From NCBI GenBank assembly GCA_934502625.1, contig CAKSUQ010000013.1, positions 1 to 63,114 on the forward strand: a stretch of 63,114 bases of DNA, written 5' to 3'. Positions 35,919 to 47,226 of the stretch are shown one piece after another. The notes beneath the pieces were generated by a model. It worked only from the letters and a program-made list of their open reading frames with translations, was not told the DNA's origin and did not search any database. A program made the translations under genes and the position numbers. The stretch comes from an uncultured Gemmiger sp. (GTDB taxonomy: Bacteria > Bacillota > Clostridia > Oscillospirales > Ruminococcaceae). Every line of letters starts with the position of its first letter. The stretch's first letter is position 1.

Positions 35919-37934
<2,016 letters not shown>

Positions 37935-37953: not shown

Positions 37954-37977
37954 GTAGGGGCCGGGCATGCCCGGCCC
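37954..37977 (+). repeat. REP palindrome, left flank of the RAYT gene
   Basis: GTAG foot followed by the perfect palindrome GGGCCGGGCATGCCCGGCCC, 41 bases before the RAYT start. Confidence 0.85.
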
Positions 37978-38017
37978 GCCGCATAAAAACCACCGCCCCG
38001 TTTATGGTGTATGAATC

Positions 38018-38479
38018 ATGGATTATACGATTTTATGCACGCGCAAAAATCCCCGTTTGCAAAATTATGATTATAGAAGAGAAAATTATTATTTTGTGAC
38101 CGTATGTGCGCATCATAAACAATGTGTGTTTGGCGCGGCAGGAAAACCAAATGACGTCGGACAAATGGCTGCACAAGGAATAAAGGATATTTCCAGACAT
38201 TTTCCCGGTGTGGATGTGGATGAATATGTGGTAATGCCAAATCATGTTCATATGATATTGGTTTTTCCGCAGGAACAATGTAATTTGTCCGCCGTAGTGG
38301 GAAGCTACAAGTCGTATGTGTCCAAAATGTTCCATGTGGAACATCCGGGTGTGACATTGTGGCAGCGTTCATTTTATGATCATATTATTCGTGATGAAAA
38401 CGCGTATTGTGAAATAAAAAGATATATTCAGGAAAATCCGTTGAAATGGAATTTGGATGAATATAACCCACACGCATAG
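38018..38479 (+). CDS. REP-associated tyrosine transposase (RAYT, IS200-like Y1 fold)
   Basis: The 153-residue product has the Y1-transposase arrangement: an RRENYYFVTVCAHHK strand, the metal-binding HxH in VMPNHVHMILVFP, a basic SFYDHIIRDENAYCEIKRYI helix with the candidate catalytic Tyr, and ENPLKW, equivalent to the Y-I-xx-NP motif of RAYTs. RAYTs nick single-stranded REP hairpins next to a conserved tetranucleotide. The gene is AT-rich compared with gyrB and gyrA, is flanked on both sides by GTAG-foot palindromes, and contains a parS-like site. It appears intact. It could be domesticated rather than actively mobile. Confidence 0.88.
   Translation: MDYTILCTRKNPRLQNYDYRRENYYFVTVCAHHKQCVFGAAGKPNDVGQMAAQGIKDISRHFPGVDVDEYVVMPNHVHMILVFPQEQCNLSAVVGSYKSYVSKMFHVEHPGVTLWQRSFYDHIIRDENAYCEIKRYIQENPLKWNLDEYNPHA
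38328..38343. promoter_or_regulatory. parS-like site inside the RAYT gene
   Basis: TGTTCCATGTGGAACA differs from the palindrome TGTTCCACGTGGAACA at one central base. It encodes the MFHVEHP part of the transposase. Confidence 0.65.
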
Positions 38480-38480
38480 C

Positions 38481-38575
38481 GTAGGGGCCGGGCATGCCCG
38501 GCCCGCAGCGTACAAGCAACGACCCGTTTGTGGGCAATAACGCAAAGTTGAGGGCCGGGCATGCCCGGCCCCTAC
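38481..38575. repeat. Paired REP palindromes (BIME-like), right flank of the RAYT gene
   Basis: 38481-38504 starts GTAG and 38552-38575 is the exact mirror unit ending CTAC; both have the core GGCCGGGCATGCCCGGCC found to the left of the RAYT gene. Confidence 0.85.
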
Positions 38576-38624: not shown

Positions 38625-41207
38625 ATGGAAGAAAACATCATCATGGTGCCGGGGTCCGGTACCAAGGTCATTGTGCGCGATGTGAAGCAGGAGATCGAGA
38701 CGGCGTTCCTTGACTACTCGATGTCTGTTATCGTGGCGCGCGCTCTGCCCGATGTGCGCGACGGCCTGAAGCCCGTCCACCGCCGCATCCTGTACACGAT
38801 GCACGAGCGCGGCAACGACCCGCAGCACCCCTACCGCAAATCCGCCGATACCGTCGGTGCGGTGCTGGGCTCGTACCACCCGCACGGCGATTCCTCGGTC
38901 TATGATGCCATGGTGCGTCTGGCACAGGATTTCAGCCTGCGTTACCCGCTGGTGGACGGCCAGGGCAACTTCGGCTCCGTGGACGGCGACCCCCCGGCTG
39001 CTTACCGTTACACCGAGGCCCGCATGTCCAAGATGGCCTGCGAGATGCTGACCGACATTGAAAAAGACACCATCGACTGGGACCCCAACTTTGACGAGAC
39101 CAAGAAGGAGCCCCACGTCCTGCCCAGCCGCTTCCCGAACCTGCTGGTCAACGGCAGTCAGGGCATCGCCGTCGGCATGGCGACGAACATCCCGCCCCAC
39201 AACCTGCGCGAGATCGTCAACGGCATGGTCGCCATGATGGACGACCCCGAGATCGACCTGGCCGGGCTGATGGAGTACGTCAAGGGCCCCGACTTCCCGA
39301 CGGGCGGCATCATCATGGGCCGCAGCGGCATCCGCGCCGCCTACGCCACGGGCCGCGGCAAAATCACGCTGCGGGGCCGTGCCGAGATCGTCGAGAAGAA
39401 GAACGGCCGCTACGAGATCCTCATCTCCGAAATCCCCTACATGGTCAACAAGACCCGCCTGATCGAGTCCATCGCTGACCTTGTGAAGGACAAGCGCATC
39501 GAGGGCATCAGCGACCTGAACGACGAGTCCTCGAGCCGCACCGGCATGAAGATCGTCATTGAGATCAAGAAGGACGCGAACCCCCAGGTCGTGCTGAACC
39601 AGCTCTACCGCTTCACCCAGCTGCAGGACACCGTCGGCGTCATCATGCTGGCGCTGGACGACGGCGTGCCCAAGATCATGAGCCTGAAAACCATGATGGA
39701 GCGCTATATTGAGTTCCAGATGCAGGTCATCCGCCGCCGCACCGCGTTTGAGCTGAAGAAGGCAAAGGAGCGCGAGCACATCCTCGAGGGCCTGCACAAG
39801 GCCGTTGACATCGTCGATGAGATCATCGCGACGATCCGCGCCTGCAAGGGCGGCTTTGCCGAAGCGCGGCAGGCCGTCATGGACAACTTCGGTTTTGACG
39901 AGCTGCAGGCGGACGCCATTGTCAAGCTGCAATTGGGCCGTCTGGCCGGTTTGGAGATCCTCAAAATCGAGCAGGAGTTGGGCGAGCTGCGCGAGGCCAT
40001 CGCCGATTATGAGGACATTCTGGCCAACGACGAGCACGTCAAGCGCATCGTCAAGACCGACCTGACCGCGCTGGCCGACAAGTACGGCGACGAGCGCCGC
40101 ACCTCCATCGAGGCTGTGTCCGGAGAGGTCGACATTGAGGATCTGATCCCGGAGGAGACATGCGTCTTCACGCTGACCCACGAGGGCTACATCAAGCGCA
40201 CGACGCTGGACACCTATCAGGCACAGAACCGCGGCGGCCGCGGTGTGCAGGGCATGACCCAAAAGGACGACGACTTCACCGAGGAGCTGTTCGTCGGTTC
40301 GACCCATGACTATATGCTGTTCATGACGAATCAGGGCCGCGTCTACCGCCTGAAGGGCTATCAGGTGCCGGAGGGCAGCCGCACGGCCAAGGGCAGCCAT
40401 ATCGTGAACCTGCTGCAATTGCAGGAGGGCGAAAAGGTTACCCTGATGCTGCAGCAGAAGGCCGGCGTCGACGAGGAGAACACCTACGCGACGATGATCA
40501 CGAAGCAGGGTCTTATCAAGCGCACGCCGCTGTCCCAGTTCCGAAACATCCGCAAGGCAGGTCTGATCGCCATTGCGCTGAACGAGGGTGACAGCCTTGT
40601 GTGGAGCCACCTGACGAAGGGCGACGACGAGATCATCGTCGCCACCCACGACGGCGCGGCCATCCACTTCACCGAGGACGGTGCCCGCTCGATGGGGCGT
40701 ACCGGCCACGGCGTCCGCGTCATTAAGCTGCGCGAGGGCGACTATGTCGTCGGTGCAGGCGTCTGCCGCCCCGGTGCGACGGTGCTTACCATCAGCGAGG
40801 AAGGCAAGGGGCGCCGCAGCCGCATCGATGATTACCGCATCACGAAGCGCGGCGGCTTGGGCATCCGCAACTACTCCAACGGCGACGTGGCGGGCATCAA
40901 GATCGTGGACGACACCGACGATTTGATTTTGATCAGCCAGAACGGCATACTCATCCGCATTCACGCGTCGGACATCAACATCCAGAGCCGCTACGGCAGC
41001 GGCGTCCGCGTCATGCGTCTGGTCGAGGACGACAAGGTGGCCGTGGTTGCCCGCGTCGACCGCGACAACGAGGCCGAGACCGCGAAGATCGAGGACGCAG
41101 GCGAGACCGACCCGACCCCGGAAGAGTTGGCAGCCATCGAGGCCGAGGAGTTGGCGCAGGAGGCCGCGGAGGATAACGCAGCACCCGAAAACGATAACGA
41201 GGAGTGA
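38625..41207 (+). CDS. gyrA: DNA gyrase subunit A
   Basis: The 860-residue subunit cuts and rejoins DNA through Tyr129 in [12 protein letters not shown]. The GyrA box is [11 protein letters not shown], and C-terminal beta-pinwheel blades follow. The quinolone-determining region reads [15 protein letters not shown]: Ser90 and Asp94, equivalents of E. coli Ser83 and Asp87, are unchanged. The C-terminus has an acidic tail ([20 protein letters not shown]). The start at 38625 is where family similarity begins. The gene ends in a perfect ACTTTCTTTG palindrome. Confidence 0.98.
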
Positions 41208-41305: not shown

Positions 41306-42694
41306 ATGGAACTGCACACAACCATCTGCGCGCTGGCGACGCCACCGGGCGAGGGCGGTATTGCCACCGTCCGCGTGTCCGGCGCGGACGCCTACGGCAT
41401 CGTTGGCAAAATATTTGCGCCGGTGCGGCAGGGCAGGCGCGTCGCCGATGCCAAGGGCTACACCGCGATGCTCGGCCACTATCTGCTGCGCGGCGAGGAG
41501 ATGGACGAGTGCGTGGCGCTGTTTTTCCGCGCACCGCACTCCTACACCGGCGAGGATGTGATAGAGTTGTCCGTCCACGGCGGCACGGCCATGGCCGATG
41601 GCCTGCTGGAGGCACTGATTCTGGCGGGCTGCACGCCCGCCGCACCCGGCGAGTTCACCCGCCGCGCGCTGGAAAACGGCCGCATGTCGCTGACACAGGC
41701 CGAGGCCGTGATGGAGGTTATCGCGGCGAACGGGCGGCAGGGGGCGGCGCTGGCAAAATCAGCGCTGGACGGGCGGCTGGCAAAGCGCATCGGGCGCATC
41801 CAGACCGCGCTGCAAACGCTGAACGCCCACCTGACTGCGTGGGTCGACTACCCGGAGGAGGATGTGCCCGAACTGTCCGACGAGGCGTTTGTCGCCACGC
41901 TGACCGCGCAGAAAGCCGAGCTGGACGCGCTGATCTCCGGCTACAGCGCAGGCGCGGTGCTGCGGCACGGCGTCGACTGCGTGCTGCTGGGGCGGCCGAA
42001 CGTGGGCAAAAGCACATTGCTGAACCTGCTGGCAGGGTTCGACCGCGCCATCGTCACGCCGGTGGCGGGCACGACCCGCGATATTGTGGAGCAGGCCGTC
42101 CAACTGGGCAGCGTGCGGCTGAACCTGTTTGACACCGCCGGTGTGCGGGAGGTCGGCGCGGACGGCGATGCCATCGAGGCCGAGGGCATCCGCCGCAGCT
42201 GGAAAAAGCTCGACGAGGCCGGGCTGGTGCTGGCGGTGTTCGACGCCGCGCAGCCGCTGTGCGACGACGATTTAGAGCTGGCACGCAAGTGCCGGGGCCG
42301 CCCGGCAATCGCCGTTTTGAATAAGCAGGACTTGGCGGGGGAGCAGAAGGTTCCACGTGGAACATTGGAGCCGTATTTTAAGAAAATCGTCCCCATGTGT
42401 GCGAAGGACGCCGTGGGCTTGCAGGCCTTGACCGACGCCGTAGCTGACTTGCTGGGCACGGCGCAGCTTGACCCCGGCGCGGCCCAGCTGTGCAGCGCAA
42501 GACAGTTGGCGGCGGCGACCCGTGCCCGTGATGCGCTGGCCGAAGCGATAGCAGCGAAACAAGATGGTTTTGGGCTGGATGCTGCGGCGGTGTGTTTGAC
42601 CGATGCCTTACAAGCCCTGTATGATTTAACCGGCGAGGATGCGACAGCGGCAACAATCGATGAAGTATTTGAAACGTTCTGTGTGGGCAAATAA
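41306..42694 (+). CDS. mnmE: tRNA modification GTPase MnmE
   Basis: The 462-residue GTPase works with MnmG to add a (carboxymethyl)aminomethyl group to wobble uridine 34 of certain tRNAs. The N-terminal folate-binding domain (TICALATPPGEGGIATVRVS), the G domain (GRPNVGKSTLLN, DTAGVRE, NKQD) and the C-terminal FCVGK end with the catalytic Cys are present. The ATG follows AAAAGGAG. A parS-like site (42349-42364) is embedded in the coding sequence. The gene is normally beside mnmG; repeat element C intervenes. Confidence 0.97.
   Translation: MELHTTICALATPPGEGGIATVRVSGADAYGIVGKIFAPVRQGRRVADAKGYTAMLGHYLLRGEEMDECVALFFRAPHSYTGEDVIELSVHGGTAMADGLLEALILAGCTPAAPGEFTRRALENGRMSLTQAEAVMEVIAANGRQGAALAKSALDGRLAKRIGRIQTALQTLNAHLTAWVDYPEEDVPELSDEAFVATLTAQKAELDALISGYSAGAVLRHGVDCVLLGRPNVGKSTLLNLLAGFDRAIVTPVAGTTRDIVEQAVQLGSVRLNLFDTAGVREVGADGDAIEAEGIRRSWKKLDEAGLVLAVFDAAQPLCDDDLELARKCRGRPAIAVLNKQDLAGEQKVPRGTLEPYFKKIVPMCAKDAVGLQALTDAVADLLGTAQLDPGAAQLCSARQLAAATRARDALAEAIAAKQDGFGLDAAAVCLTDALQALYDLTGEDATAATIDEVFETFCVGK
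42349..42364. promoter_or_regulatory. parS-like site in mnmE
   Basis: GGTTCCACGTGGAACA matches the palindrome TGTTCCACGTGGAACA at 15 of 16 positions. Confidence 0.7.
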
Positions 42695-45269: not shown

Positions 45270-45974
45270 ATGATTGATAAAAACAGATTACAAGCCAAAT
45301 GTTCCACGTGGAACATTGAATTGACCGGCGCACAGATGGACCTGCTGGACAGGTACGCCGAGCTGCTGGTCAGCTATAACGAGAAGGTCAACCTGACCGC
45401 CATCACCAGCCCCGAGGGCATCGAGGACCGCCACTTTGCGGACAGCCTGCTGTTTGCGGCGCAGCCCGAGGTACAGGGTAAGCTGGTGGATGTCGGCACC
45501 GGTGCGGGCTTCCCGGGCATTGTGGCAAAAATCTACAAGCCCGATCTGGAACTGACGCTGATGGAGCCGACGGGCAAGCGCGTGGACTTTTTACGCTACG
45601 CCTGTGCCGAGCTGGGTCTGACCGGCGTCGAGTTTGCGAAGGAGCGCGCCGAGGAGGCTGCCCGCAAGATTTGGCGCGAGCAGTTCGACGTGGCCAGCGC
45701 CCGCGCGGTGGCGGCGCTGCCCGTGCTGTGCGAATACTGCCTGCCGCTGGTCAAAGTCGGCGGACGGTTCATTGCGATGAAAGGCCCCGAGGCGGACGCC
45801 GAAGCAAAAGCCGCCGCCAACGCGCTGAAAAAGCTGGGCGGCCAATATGAGGAAACGCGCGCCTTCACGTTGCCGGACGGCAGTGCCCGCGGGCTGGTGT
45901 TCTGCAAAAAAATATCGCAGACTCCGACGGTTTACCCCCGAAACGGCGGAAAAATTGCAAAGAAACCGTTGTAA
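45270..45974 (+). CDS. rsmG: 16S rRNA (guanine527-N7)-methyltransferase
   Basis: The 234-residue enzyme methylates G527 of 16S rRNA with S-adenosylmethionine. VDVGTGAGFPGI is the cofactor motif, followed by LTLMEPTGKRVDFLRYAC and the FDVASARAVAALPVLCEYCL block. Codons 11-16 (CSTWNI) are written by a perfect parS site, so the N-terminus has been shaped by it. AAGGAG precedes the ATG. Confidence 0.96.
   Translation: MIDKNRLQAKCSTWNIELTGAQMDLLDRYAELLVSYNEKVNLTAITSPEGIEDRHFADSLLFAAQPEVQGKLVDVGTGAGFPGIVAKIYKPDLELTLMEPTGKRVDFLRYACAELGLTGVEFAKERAEEAARKIWREQFDVASARAVAALPVLCEYCLPLVKVGGRFIAMKGPEADAEAKAAANALKKLGGQYEETRAFTLPDGSARGLVFCKKISQTPTVYPRNGGKIAKKPL
45300..45315. promoter_or_regulatory. parS site in rsmG
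   Basis: TGTTCCACGTGGAACA, a perfect 16-base palindrome of the Firmicutes parS type. Confidence 0.9.
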
Positions 45975-46080: not shown

Positions 46081-46104
46081 GTAGGGGCCGGGCATGCCCG
46101 GCCC
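46081..46104 (+). repeat. REP palindrome
   Basis: GTAG foot plus GGGCCGGGCATGCCCGGCCC, identical to the copies flanking the RAYT gene. It lies in the gap before noc. Confidence 0.85.
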
Positions 46105-47179: not shown

Positions 47180-47226
47180 AAGCCCCCTTAAATGTTCCAC
47201 GTGGAACATTTAGGGGGGCTTTTTTG
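47180..47226 (+). terminator. Terminator with parS at its centre
   Basis: AGCCCCCTTAAA and TTTAGGGGGGCT flank TGTTCCACGTGGAACA, so the whole 40-base stem is palindromic, followed by TTTTTT. It lies between noc and soj. Confidence 0.85.
47193..47208. promoter_or_regulatory. parS site before soj
   Basis: Perfect TGTTCCACGTGGAACA in the apical part of the terminator hairpin. Confidence 0.9.

What the first reader, a model, noticed from the sequence alone, without database searches (positions are those of the whole stretch)
37954..38575. A complete RAYT/REP system inserted between gyrB and gyrA
A 153-residue Y1-type transposase (HxH in MPNHVHMIL) is bracketed by palindromes that share the stem GGGCCGGGCATGCCCGGCCC and a GTAG foot, one at its left and a mirror-image pair at its right. 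In enterobacteria and pseudomonads, RAYT proteins recognise REP hairpins with a conserved 5' GTAG or GGAG foot. The same arrangement inside the gyrase operon of a GC-rich Firmicute is striking, and the AT-rich gene looks acquired.
Basis: partly seen in the sequence, partly recalled or inferred. Interest (0 to 1): 0.8.

Follow-up and report, generated by a model that had tools for sequence, protein, structure and literature searches.

The report
REP-cutting enzyme docked in gyrase operon
A small DNA-cutting enzyme gene with its own family of repeated DNA hairpins sits between the two genes for DNA gyrase in a gut bacterium, and unrelated versions of that gene turn up in the same spot in other bacteria, which hints at an unexplained link between these repeats and gyrase.

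Summary
Window 37954-38575 is a RAYT (TnpA-REP) gene with a GTAG-foot REP on its left and a REPIN (two inverted REPs, 47-nt spacer) on its right, between gyrB and gyrA. NCBIfam REP_Tyr_transpos scores 79.2 bits (cut-off 80). The exact 24-nt REP occurs 91 times in the relative G001 (control 0).

The location is the new part. In the genus of G001 a RAYT lies between gyrB and gyrA in 10 of 27 extracted junctions; an 11th has a remnant. The window's RAYT is not the genus's usual one: it falls in a clade with those of G001, G563 and G962, all three between gyrB and gyrA, though G563 and G962 are distant hosts (gyrA 63-67% identical). Five more distant genomes have a RAYT in that gap. One origin is rejected (p-AU 0.001). 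The cassette is 98.7% identical to G001's at third codon positions, against 78-79% in gyrB and gyrA, so it moved laterally.

A known kind of element, then, with an apparently undescribed, recurrent home in the gyrase operon. Function there is unproven.

The parts
35952..37934 (+). gyrB (660 aa), upstream neighbour
   Evidence: tblastn anchor
37954..37977 (+). left REP: GTAG foot + 20-nt perfect palindrome
37978..37998 (+). piece of REPIN spacer behind the left REP (half-REPIN); with the REP 84% identical over 45 nt to 38481-38525
   Evidence: family D3
38018..38479 (+). RAYT / TnpA-REP gene, 153 aa; HUH = MPNHVH, WQ....DH..R block, catalytic Tyr in YIQENP
38328..38343 (+). parS-like TGTTCCATGTGGAACA inside the RAYT ORF (1 mismatch to the pattern searched)
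   Evidence: the parS identification is recalled
38481..38504 (+). middle REP (left arm of the REPIN); exactly 24 nt are absent here from G001
38505..38551 (.). 47-nt REPIN spacer
   Evidence: similar units of about 96 bp elsewhere in G001, G008 and G015
38552..38575 (-). right REP, inverted (right arm of the REPIN, GTAG facing outwards)
38625..41207 (+). gyrA (860 aa), downstream neighbour; leader GTTAAGGTGATACA shared with G001, G008, G015
46081..46104 (+). dispersed exact copy of the same REP elsewhere in the window

Best explanation
It is a REPtron: a transposase-derived HUH/Y1 enzyme (RAYT, TnpA-REP) with its cognate GTAG-foot REP hairpins arranged as a half-REPIN and a REPIN. By homology, the enzyme binds a REP as a folded single-stranded hairpin through the GTAG foot and the stem, and nicks and rejoins DNA beside it with its tyrosine; in that way it would copy or maintain the dispersed REPs (91 exact copies in the relative G001). 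Shown here: gene, predicted fold, motifs, REP family and RAYT-REP co-typing. Inferred: the biochemistry. The cassette sits in a recurrent docking site. The gap between gyrB and gyrA has been occupied several times, in distantly related genomes of the same order, by different RAYT lineages that read in the direction of gyrase, and cassettes in it are swapped between species. The window's cassette came in laterally, probably replacing the clade A RAYT that G008 and G015 still carry (inferred). Why RAYTs gather there is also inferred: most likely the gap tolerates insertions and gives the enzyme steady co-transcription with an essential operon; a direct tie to gyrase is possible.
For: Family and fold: Pfam Y1_Tnp 41.7 bits (cut-off 23); NCBIfam NF047646 79.2 bits (cut-off 80), and 86.8 for the G563 relative; PDB 4er8 TnpArep is the best sequence hit (E 4.5e-5); model pLDDT 89; Foldseek ranks ISDra2 transposase first and 4er8 fourth by E-value, 4er8 with the highest query TM of the 50 listed (0.66, rmsd 3.0). 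REPs: 91 exact copies in G001; neighbouring REPs face GTAG outward more often than inward: 7:1 window, 16:0 in 260 kb of G001, 26:12 in 233 kb of G008, 2:1 in 51 kb of G015. Co-typing. Docking: RAYT between gyrB and gyrA in 10 of 27 extracted junctions of the genus plus 1 remnant, and in 7 genomes outside it (G563, G962, G934, G767, G907, G661, G667; gyrB and gyrA both verified), among about 244 RAYT places (compared by eye with gyrA places), where 0.12-0.16 would be expected if all gaps were equal. In 109 RAYT loci not chosen for their neighbours (51 lineages), gyrB/parE is the commonest neighbour family (9 lineages) and gyrA second (7). Several arrivals: the gyrBA label needs 7 changes, at least 4 forced by starred branches; one clade rejected, p-AU 0.0011. 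Swap: RAYT third-position identity WIN/G001 98.7% against gyrB 78.3% and gyrA 78.7%; the gyr tree puts WIN with G008 (89/91), which holds a 36%-identical RAYT; G005/G025 have gyrB and gyrA segments 99-100% identical in protein but RAYTs 49%.
Against: No biochemistry or expression data. The window's own genome is not held. The NCBIfam score for the window protein is just under its cut-off. G008 has 162 copies of the REP without the cognate RAYT. RAYTs evolve fast, so part of the scatter of gyr-located RAYTs could be one old insertion poorly resolved; the grouping of WIN with G008 on the gyr tree is not starred. A second recurrent neighbourhood exists inside the genus (histidine-operon-like, 5 lineages in 8 loci, one place fetched twice; gene names recalled from sequence), so the preference is not for gyrase alone. 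No gyrB-gyrA RAYT was found in the 22 loci taken from the wider family of G001.
Confidence: 0.82

Rival explanations
1. Functional coupling: RAYT is co-expressed with gyrase because REPs are gyrase sites or need negative supercoiling to extrude as hairpins, so REP processing and supercoiling are regulated together.
For: Recurrent docking next to type II topoisomerase genes: between gyrB and gyrA (17 genomes besides the window), upstream of gyrB (G028, G832), upstream of a parE-parC-like pair (G364), after gyrA in the opposite direction (G216). In all 17 gap cases and the window the RAYT reads with gyrase. In E. coli gyrase cleavage sites are over-represented in BIME-2 REPs (PMC6379681, passages read).
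Against: No functional data; a second favoured neighbourhood unrelated to gyrase; 17 of 27 junctions of the genus lack a RAYT, one of them with a remnant, so it is dispensable there; G808 and G468 sit near dnaN/recF, which fits 'near oriC' as well as 'near gyrase'.
Confidence: 0.3
2. One ancient insertion between gyrB and gyrA, inherited vertically with fast divergence and many losses; the separate 'lineages' are one gene.
For: RAYT diverges much faster than gyrase (G008/G015: RAYT 75% against gyr 98-99% aa); within the genus the gyr-located RAYTs other than those of the window and G001 group together.
Against: One clade rejected, p-AU 0.0028 and 0.0011; closely related species carry unrelated RAYTs in the slot while the window and G001 share a near-identical cassette.
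Confidence: 0.12
3. An active IS200/IS605 insertion sequence that happens to have landed between gyrB and gyrA.
For: Same Y1/HUH fold.
Against: NF033573 transpos_IS200 scores 31.9 bits, cut-off 55; only 2-3 Y1 genes in G001, none a close copy of another; Y motif ends NP as in class 2 (PMC6006769 Table 1, first part of section 15 read); the dispersed repeats are REPs, not whole elements.
Confidence: 0.03
4. Insertion-tolerant gap only: many kinds of repeats accumulate between gyrB and gyrA in this genus and RAYTs are simply among them.
For: Junctions without a RAYT vary from 15 to 703 nt and several look filled with other palindromic or repetitive DNA (my reading).
Against: Gap occupancy by RAYT recurs in distant hosts; gyrB/gyrA lead the neighbour list of RAYT loci. 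Other genes in such gaps were not counted.
Confidence: 0.35

Closest known systems
REPtron / RAYT (TnpA-REP) with REPINs, as in E. coli, Pseudomonas and Stenotrophomonas (PMC3733652, PMC8266576, PMC6006769)
   Same: Y1/HUH enzyme flanked by GTAG-foot palindromes; inverted REP pairs; RAYT type goes with REP type
   Different: Host is Gemmiger-like; stems are 20-nt perfect palindromes without a loop; the cassette sits in the gyrase operon and recurs there. The main text of PMC3733652 does not hold the words Firmicutes, Clostridi-, Faecalibacterium or Gemmiger.
TnpAY1 subclass 2.4 (PMC6006769 Table 1: NH[IFV]H, WQ, YIxNNP, REPs inserted in tnpAREP)
   Same: NHVH, WQ and a YIxxNP motif; about half of the related loci scanned (24 of 49) carry an inverted REP pair inside the RAYT frame
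   Different: The window gene has no internal REPs; in the gyr-located relatives with a pair it mostly brackets the HUH-coding part (6 of 7), whereas the paper places insertions generally between HuH and Y
BIME-2 / gyrase association in E. coli (PMC6379681)
   Same: REPs and gyrase meet
   Different: There the REPs are gyrase cleavage targets; here the link is genomic position only

Membership tests
RAYT / TnpA-REP | Y1/HUH transposase domain with HUH and Tyr motifs | tested here: met
   Pfam Y1_Tnp 41.7 bits, cut-off 23; H76, H78, Y136 invariant in a 49-sequence alignment; fold match
RAYT / TnpA-REP | curated REP_Tyr_transpos model | tested here: inconclusive
   79.2 bits, cut-off 80; the G563 relative passes with 86.8, the G962 relative has 74.1
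RAYT / TnpA-REP | gene flanked by GTAG-foot REPs of a family dispersed in the genome | tested here: met
   91 exact copies in G001. In the window's own genome only the 63 kb could be counted
RAYT / TnpA-REP | W, Q, E/D, H, R block that reads the GTAG foot (W94, Q95, E100, H101, R104 in E. coli) | tested here: met
   W115, Q116, R125 invariant and D121, H122 nearly so in the window and 48 relatives, with the same spacing; residue roles from PMC6006769 section 12
RAYT / TnpA-REP | cleaves and rejoins single-stranded cognate REP | not testable with these tools
   needs purified protein
REPIN | two REPs in inverted orientation, GTAG outward, with a shared spacer, dispersed | tested here: met
   38481-38575, 47-nt spacer; unit of about 96 bp found elsewhere at 72-87% identity in G001, G008 and G015; 2 exact-apex pairs in the 260 kb of G001 sampled and 4 in the 233 kb of G008, one of them overlapping
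IS200/IS605 insertion sequence | IS200 transposase model and multiple near-identical copies | tested here: not met
   31.9 bits against 55; no close copies in G001
TnpAY1 subclass 2.4 | REPs inserted within the gene | tested here: not met
   no GTAGGG or CCCTAC in the window gene; met in 7 of 10 gyr-located relatives of the genus

The most novel reading that the evidence does not exclude
RAYTs of these bacteria are part of a gyrase-linked system: they settle again and again beside type II topoisomerase genes (gyrB-gyrA, a parE-parC-like pair) because making the REP-processing enzyme together with gyrase is useful to host or element, with REP hairpins as the common substrate. The window's clade (WIN, G001, G563, G962) would be a dedicated gyrase-operon RAYT found in distant hosts.
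Probability: 0.3. Interest if true: 0.85.

Novelty: new variant of a known kind. Interest (0 to 1): 0.62.

Why it matters
What RAYTs and REPs do for a cell is an old open question, and in E. coli REPs are gyrase sites. A RAYT placed in the gyrase operon repeatedly, by unrelated lineages in distant hosts, gives a natural place to test a REP-RAYT-gyrase link. It also suggests how REP systems spread: as cassettes swapped at a fixed dock, with RAYT type and REP type changing together.

Tried and rejected

Junctions: 27 were extracted; G012's holds a run of N. G013's gap (about 270 nt by the coordinates) was not extracted, and the other genomes had no complete junction in the listed matches. Of the 17 without a RAYT, 15 longer than 60 nt were scanned for remnants: 1 hit.

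Precise mobile unit: the middle REP is absent, to the base, from G001, but the wider comparison gave no other clean case in my reading. Window REPs in G001: 8 present, 1 absent, 4 unclear, 8 without alignable flank (of 21); in G008: 8, 2, 1, 10 (of 21). Reverse, in the window: G001 8, 1, 2, 7 (of 18); G008 10, 6, 2, 26 (of 44). It stays one event, not a rule.

Viral contigs: one scan, no relative. NCBIfam on the G364 neighbours left gyrase and topoisomerase IV models all under their cut-offs, hence 'parE-parC-like'.

Rows dropped: searches left out G006C28, G023C3 and G013C106. The Mantel test used 36 RAYTs with a GTAG palindrome in or beside them that I chose; G001C90, whose internal REPs are bulged, and others without one were left out. 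One search left out six loci as duplicates, one of them (L201) in error since it is another place of the same genome, and rows under 120 aa; 104 rows gave 5 changes, 3 forced. One search used 48 rows chosen after that tree (L040 left out), so its 7 changes and p-value hold for that set. The 109 loci include several places fetched twice. Places were matched to gyrA by eye, not by script. Of 160 genomes searched for gyrA (all 91, 64, 5), 145 had a hit; places in the other 15 could not be judged. None of the 5 had a listed RAYT beside gyrA. The expected 0.12-0.16 assumes equal gaps and unrelated places, which is generous to the claim.

Papers: PMC3733652 (abstract, sections 5 and 16, passages), PMC6006769 (abstract, section 12, first part of section 15, passages), PMC8266576 (abstract, passages), PMC6379681, PMC3686654 and PMC12306157 (passages). 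All others: listing only.

Full report
WHAT IS THERE. Window 38018-38479 (+) encodes a 153-aa protein between gyrB and gyrA, all three on the same strand. REPs of identical sequence (GTAG + a 20-nt perfect palindrome) stand at 37954-37977 (+), 38481-38504 (+) and 38552-38575 (-). The right two form a REPIN, GTAG outward, with a 47-nt spacer; the left one carries part of the same spacer. Chance is excluded: the 20-mer with up to 3 mismatches occurs 8 times against 0.07 expected; GTAG is the leading foot among 256 tetranucleotides, 22 palindromes against a median of 1 for the others.

THE ENZYME. Pfam Y1_Tnp 41.7 bits, cut-off 23; REP_Tyr_transpos 79.2 bits, cut-off 80; IS200 model 31.9, cut-off 55. 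The best PDB sequence match is TnpArep 4er8. The AlphaFold model (pLDDT 89) matches IS200-type transposases; ISDra2 ranks first by E-value and 4er8 fourth, the latter with the highest query TM of the 50 listed, 0.66, rmsd 3.0. HUH (MPNHVH), catalytic Tyr (YIQENP) and the W115-Q116-D121-H122-R125 block, which has the spacing of the GTAG-reading residues listed in PMC6006769 (section 12), are conserved in an alignment with 48 relatives.

THE REPEAT FAMILY. The exact 24-mer occurs 91 times in G001 (the genome of L001, Gemmiger formicilis MCC627), 162 in G008, 4 in G015 and 0 in 32 other genomes of the genus; control 0. Neighbouring REPs tend to face outward: 7 to 1 in the window, 16 to 0 in 260 kb of G001, 26 to 12 in 233 kb of G008, 2 to 1 in 51 kb of G015. 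The window also holds other GTAG stems that resemble REPs carried by other RAYT lineages of the genus.

RAYT TYPE AND REP TYPE. With REP-encoded columns masked, RAYT distance and REP distance correlate (r 0.52, p 1e-4, 36 RAYTs; r 0.21, p 0.0026, 23 collapsed lineages). Where the REPs lie inside the gene the two are linked anyway, so the genome-wide count is the better test: the TCTTGA REP reaches at least 7 copies in 9 of 9 genomes with a clade A RAYT in the gyr gap and in 2 of 26 others (G026, G035). In G008, whose gyr RAYT carries the A/T form, 67 of the 68 listed copies (of 78) are of that form. Against: G028, whose RAYT groups with clade A but lies upstream of gyrB, has 1 copy; G005 and G025 have the TCTTGA REP although other REP types stand at their own gyr RAYT; G008 has 162 window-type REPs without a window-type RAYT.

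THE DOCK. Of 27 extracted gyrB-gyrA junctions of the genus, 10 hold a RAYT, all co-directional with gyrase; G029 keeps a 27-aa remnant. Empty junctions can be as short as 15 nt. Nine of the ten RAYTs form clade A. The window and G001 hold something else, clade B; one clade for all is rejected (p-AU 0.0028). A search of 394 genomes of the order found clade B relatives. One, in G563 (gyrB and gyrA 61% identical to the window's), lies between gyrB and gyrA with REPs that share the GGCATGCC apex. In 350 genomes of G563's family, G962 and G934 have the same arrangement. Comparing gyrA positions in the RAYT-bearing genomes added G767, G907, G661 and G667; gyrB upstream and gyrA downstream were verified in all seven. 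Nearby cases: RAYT before gyrB (G028, G832), before a parE-parC-like pair (G364), after gyrA and convergent with it (G216), between recF and gyrA with a small ORF behind it (G468), between dnaN and recF (G808). The 7 gap cases stand among about 244 RAYT places, where 0.12-0.16 would be expected if all gaps were equal and places independent. They are not all independent: the window's, G001's, G563's and G962's RAYTs share a supported clade (99/94). On a 48-row tree the gyr location needs 7 changes, 4 forced by starred branches, and one clade is rejected (p-AU 0.0011). On a 104-row quick tree it needs 5, 3 forced.

CONTROL FOR THE DOCK. In 109 RAYT loci taken as the best matches of four searches, not for their neighbours, flanking ORFs were grouped into families: gyrB/parE neighbours belong to 9 of 51 RAYT lineages and gyrA to 7. 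The next distinct neighbourhood (histidine-type genes by my reading of the sequences, all in the genus of G001) has 5. So the gyrase operon leads, but RAYTs have at least one other favoured place.

LATERAL MOVE. Between the window and G001 the slot is 98-99% identical; at third codon positions RAYT is 98.7% (n = 153), gyrB 78.3% (660), gyrA 78.7% (859); the first 276 nt of gyrA are 96%. By gyr sequence the window groups with G008 (89/91, not starred), which carries a clade A RAYT 36% identical. So the cassette between the gyrB stop and the gyrA leader was exchanged recently. G005 and G025 tell a similar story (gyr segments 99-100% in protein, RAYTs 49%). Inside the slot the middle REP is present in the window and absent, to the base, in G001. 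A metagenomic relative, P0002, reads through into the same right flank; another, P0003, runs through the REP into a different flank (my reading of the protein tails).

HOW IT LIKELY WORKS. By homology to E. coli, Stenotrophomonas and Marinomonas TnpAREP (PMC8266576, abstract and passages), the enzyme binds single-stranded REP hairpins and cuts at a dinucleotide chosen with the GTAG foot. Perfect palindromes such as these resemble the group 3 REPs there. That is inference. Placement in gyrB-gyrA would give co-transcription with an essential operon (inference). A direct link to gyrase is the bolder reading: gyrase cleavage sites are enriched in E. coli BIME-2 REPs (PMC6379681, passages).

LITERATURE. 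Searches for RAYT with gyrB and gyrA (21 papers, 10 listed), REP-associated tyrosine transposase with Firmicutes (1), a gyrase-operon transposase (0) and RAYT with gyrase and supercoiling (8) listed nothing whose title or abstract start describes this location; of the hits only PMC3686654's passages were read, and there gyrB serves as a phylogenetic marker. The library holds open-licence papers only; a 2017 paper by Bertels and colleagues on RAYT groups is known to me by recall and was not seen.

VERDICT. The element is an ordinary RAYT/REP system in kind. Its home in the gyrase operon, recurrent, cassette-like and reaching across distant hosts, is the part worth following.

Noticed in passing
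L004 (G001), L036-L044, L049, L055, L056, L100-L117: About half of the RAYT loci scanned (24 of 49; 14 of 27, 10 of 22) carry an inverted REP pair inside the RAYT frame, one on each side of the HUH-coding part in those I checked; a further bulged pair is visible in L004. Resembles subclass 2.4 of PMC6006769.
   Followed up: partly
L046 (G003 gyr RAYT): The RAYT ORF holds a tandem in-frame amplification of REPIN units with a 120-nt (40-aa) period inside its own coding sequence, giving a 253-aa gene from its first ATG.
   Followed up: no
window 38328-38343, 42349-42364, 45300-45315, 47193-47208: Four parS-like sites (TGTTCCACGTGGAACA with up to 1 mismatch; none in shuffles), one inside the RAYT ORF; in G008 and G015 a similar site lies right after the gyrB stop. 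Relatives of the window RAYT read MFHVEH or MFHMEH there. parS is recalled.
   Followed up: partly
loci L036, L037, L042, L050-L052, L054, L059 (genus of G001): A second recurrent RAYT neighbourhood next to what look like histidine biosynthesis genes (gene names by recall).
   Followed up: no
L078 (G022 gyr RAYT): HUH motif reads MPDHLQ, so the second His is lost: possibly a dying copy.
   Followed up: no
L037 (G029 C13), downstream of the RAYT: Twelve near-identical GTAG REPs in tandem with a period of about 31 nt behind a RAYT gene.
   Followed up: no
G907:C17:23069-23506: A second RAYT match lies on the gyrA contig of G907, roughly 4 kb from the gyrA start on the far side from the gap copy.
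   Followed up: no
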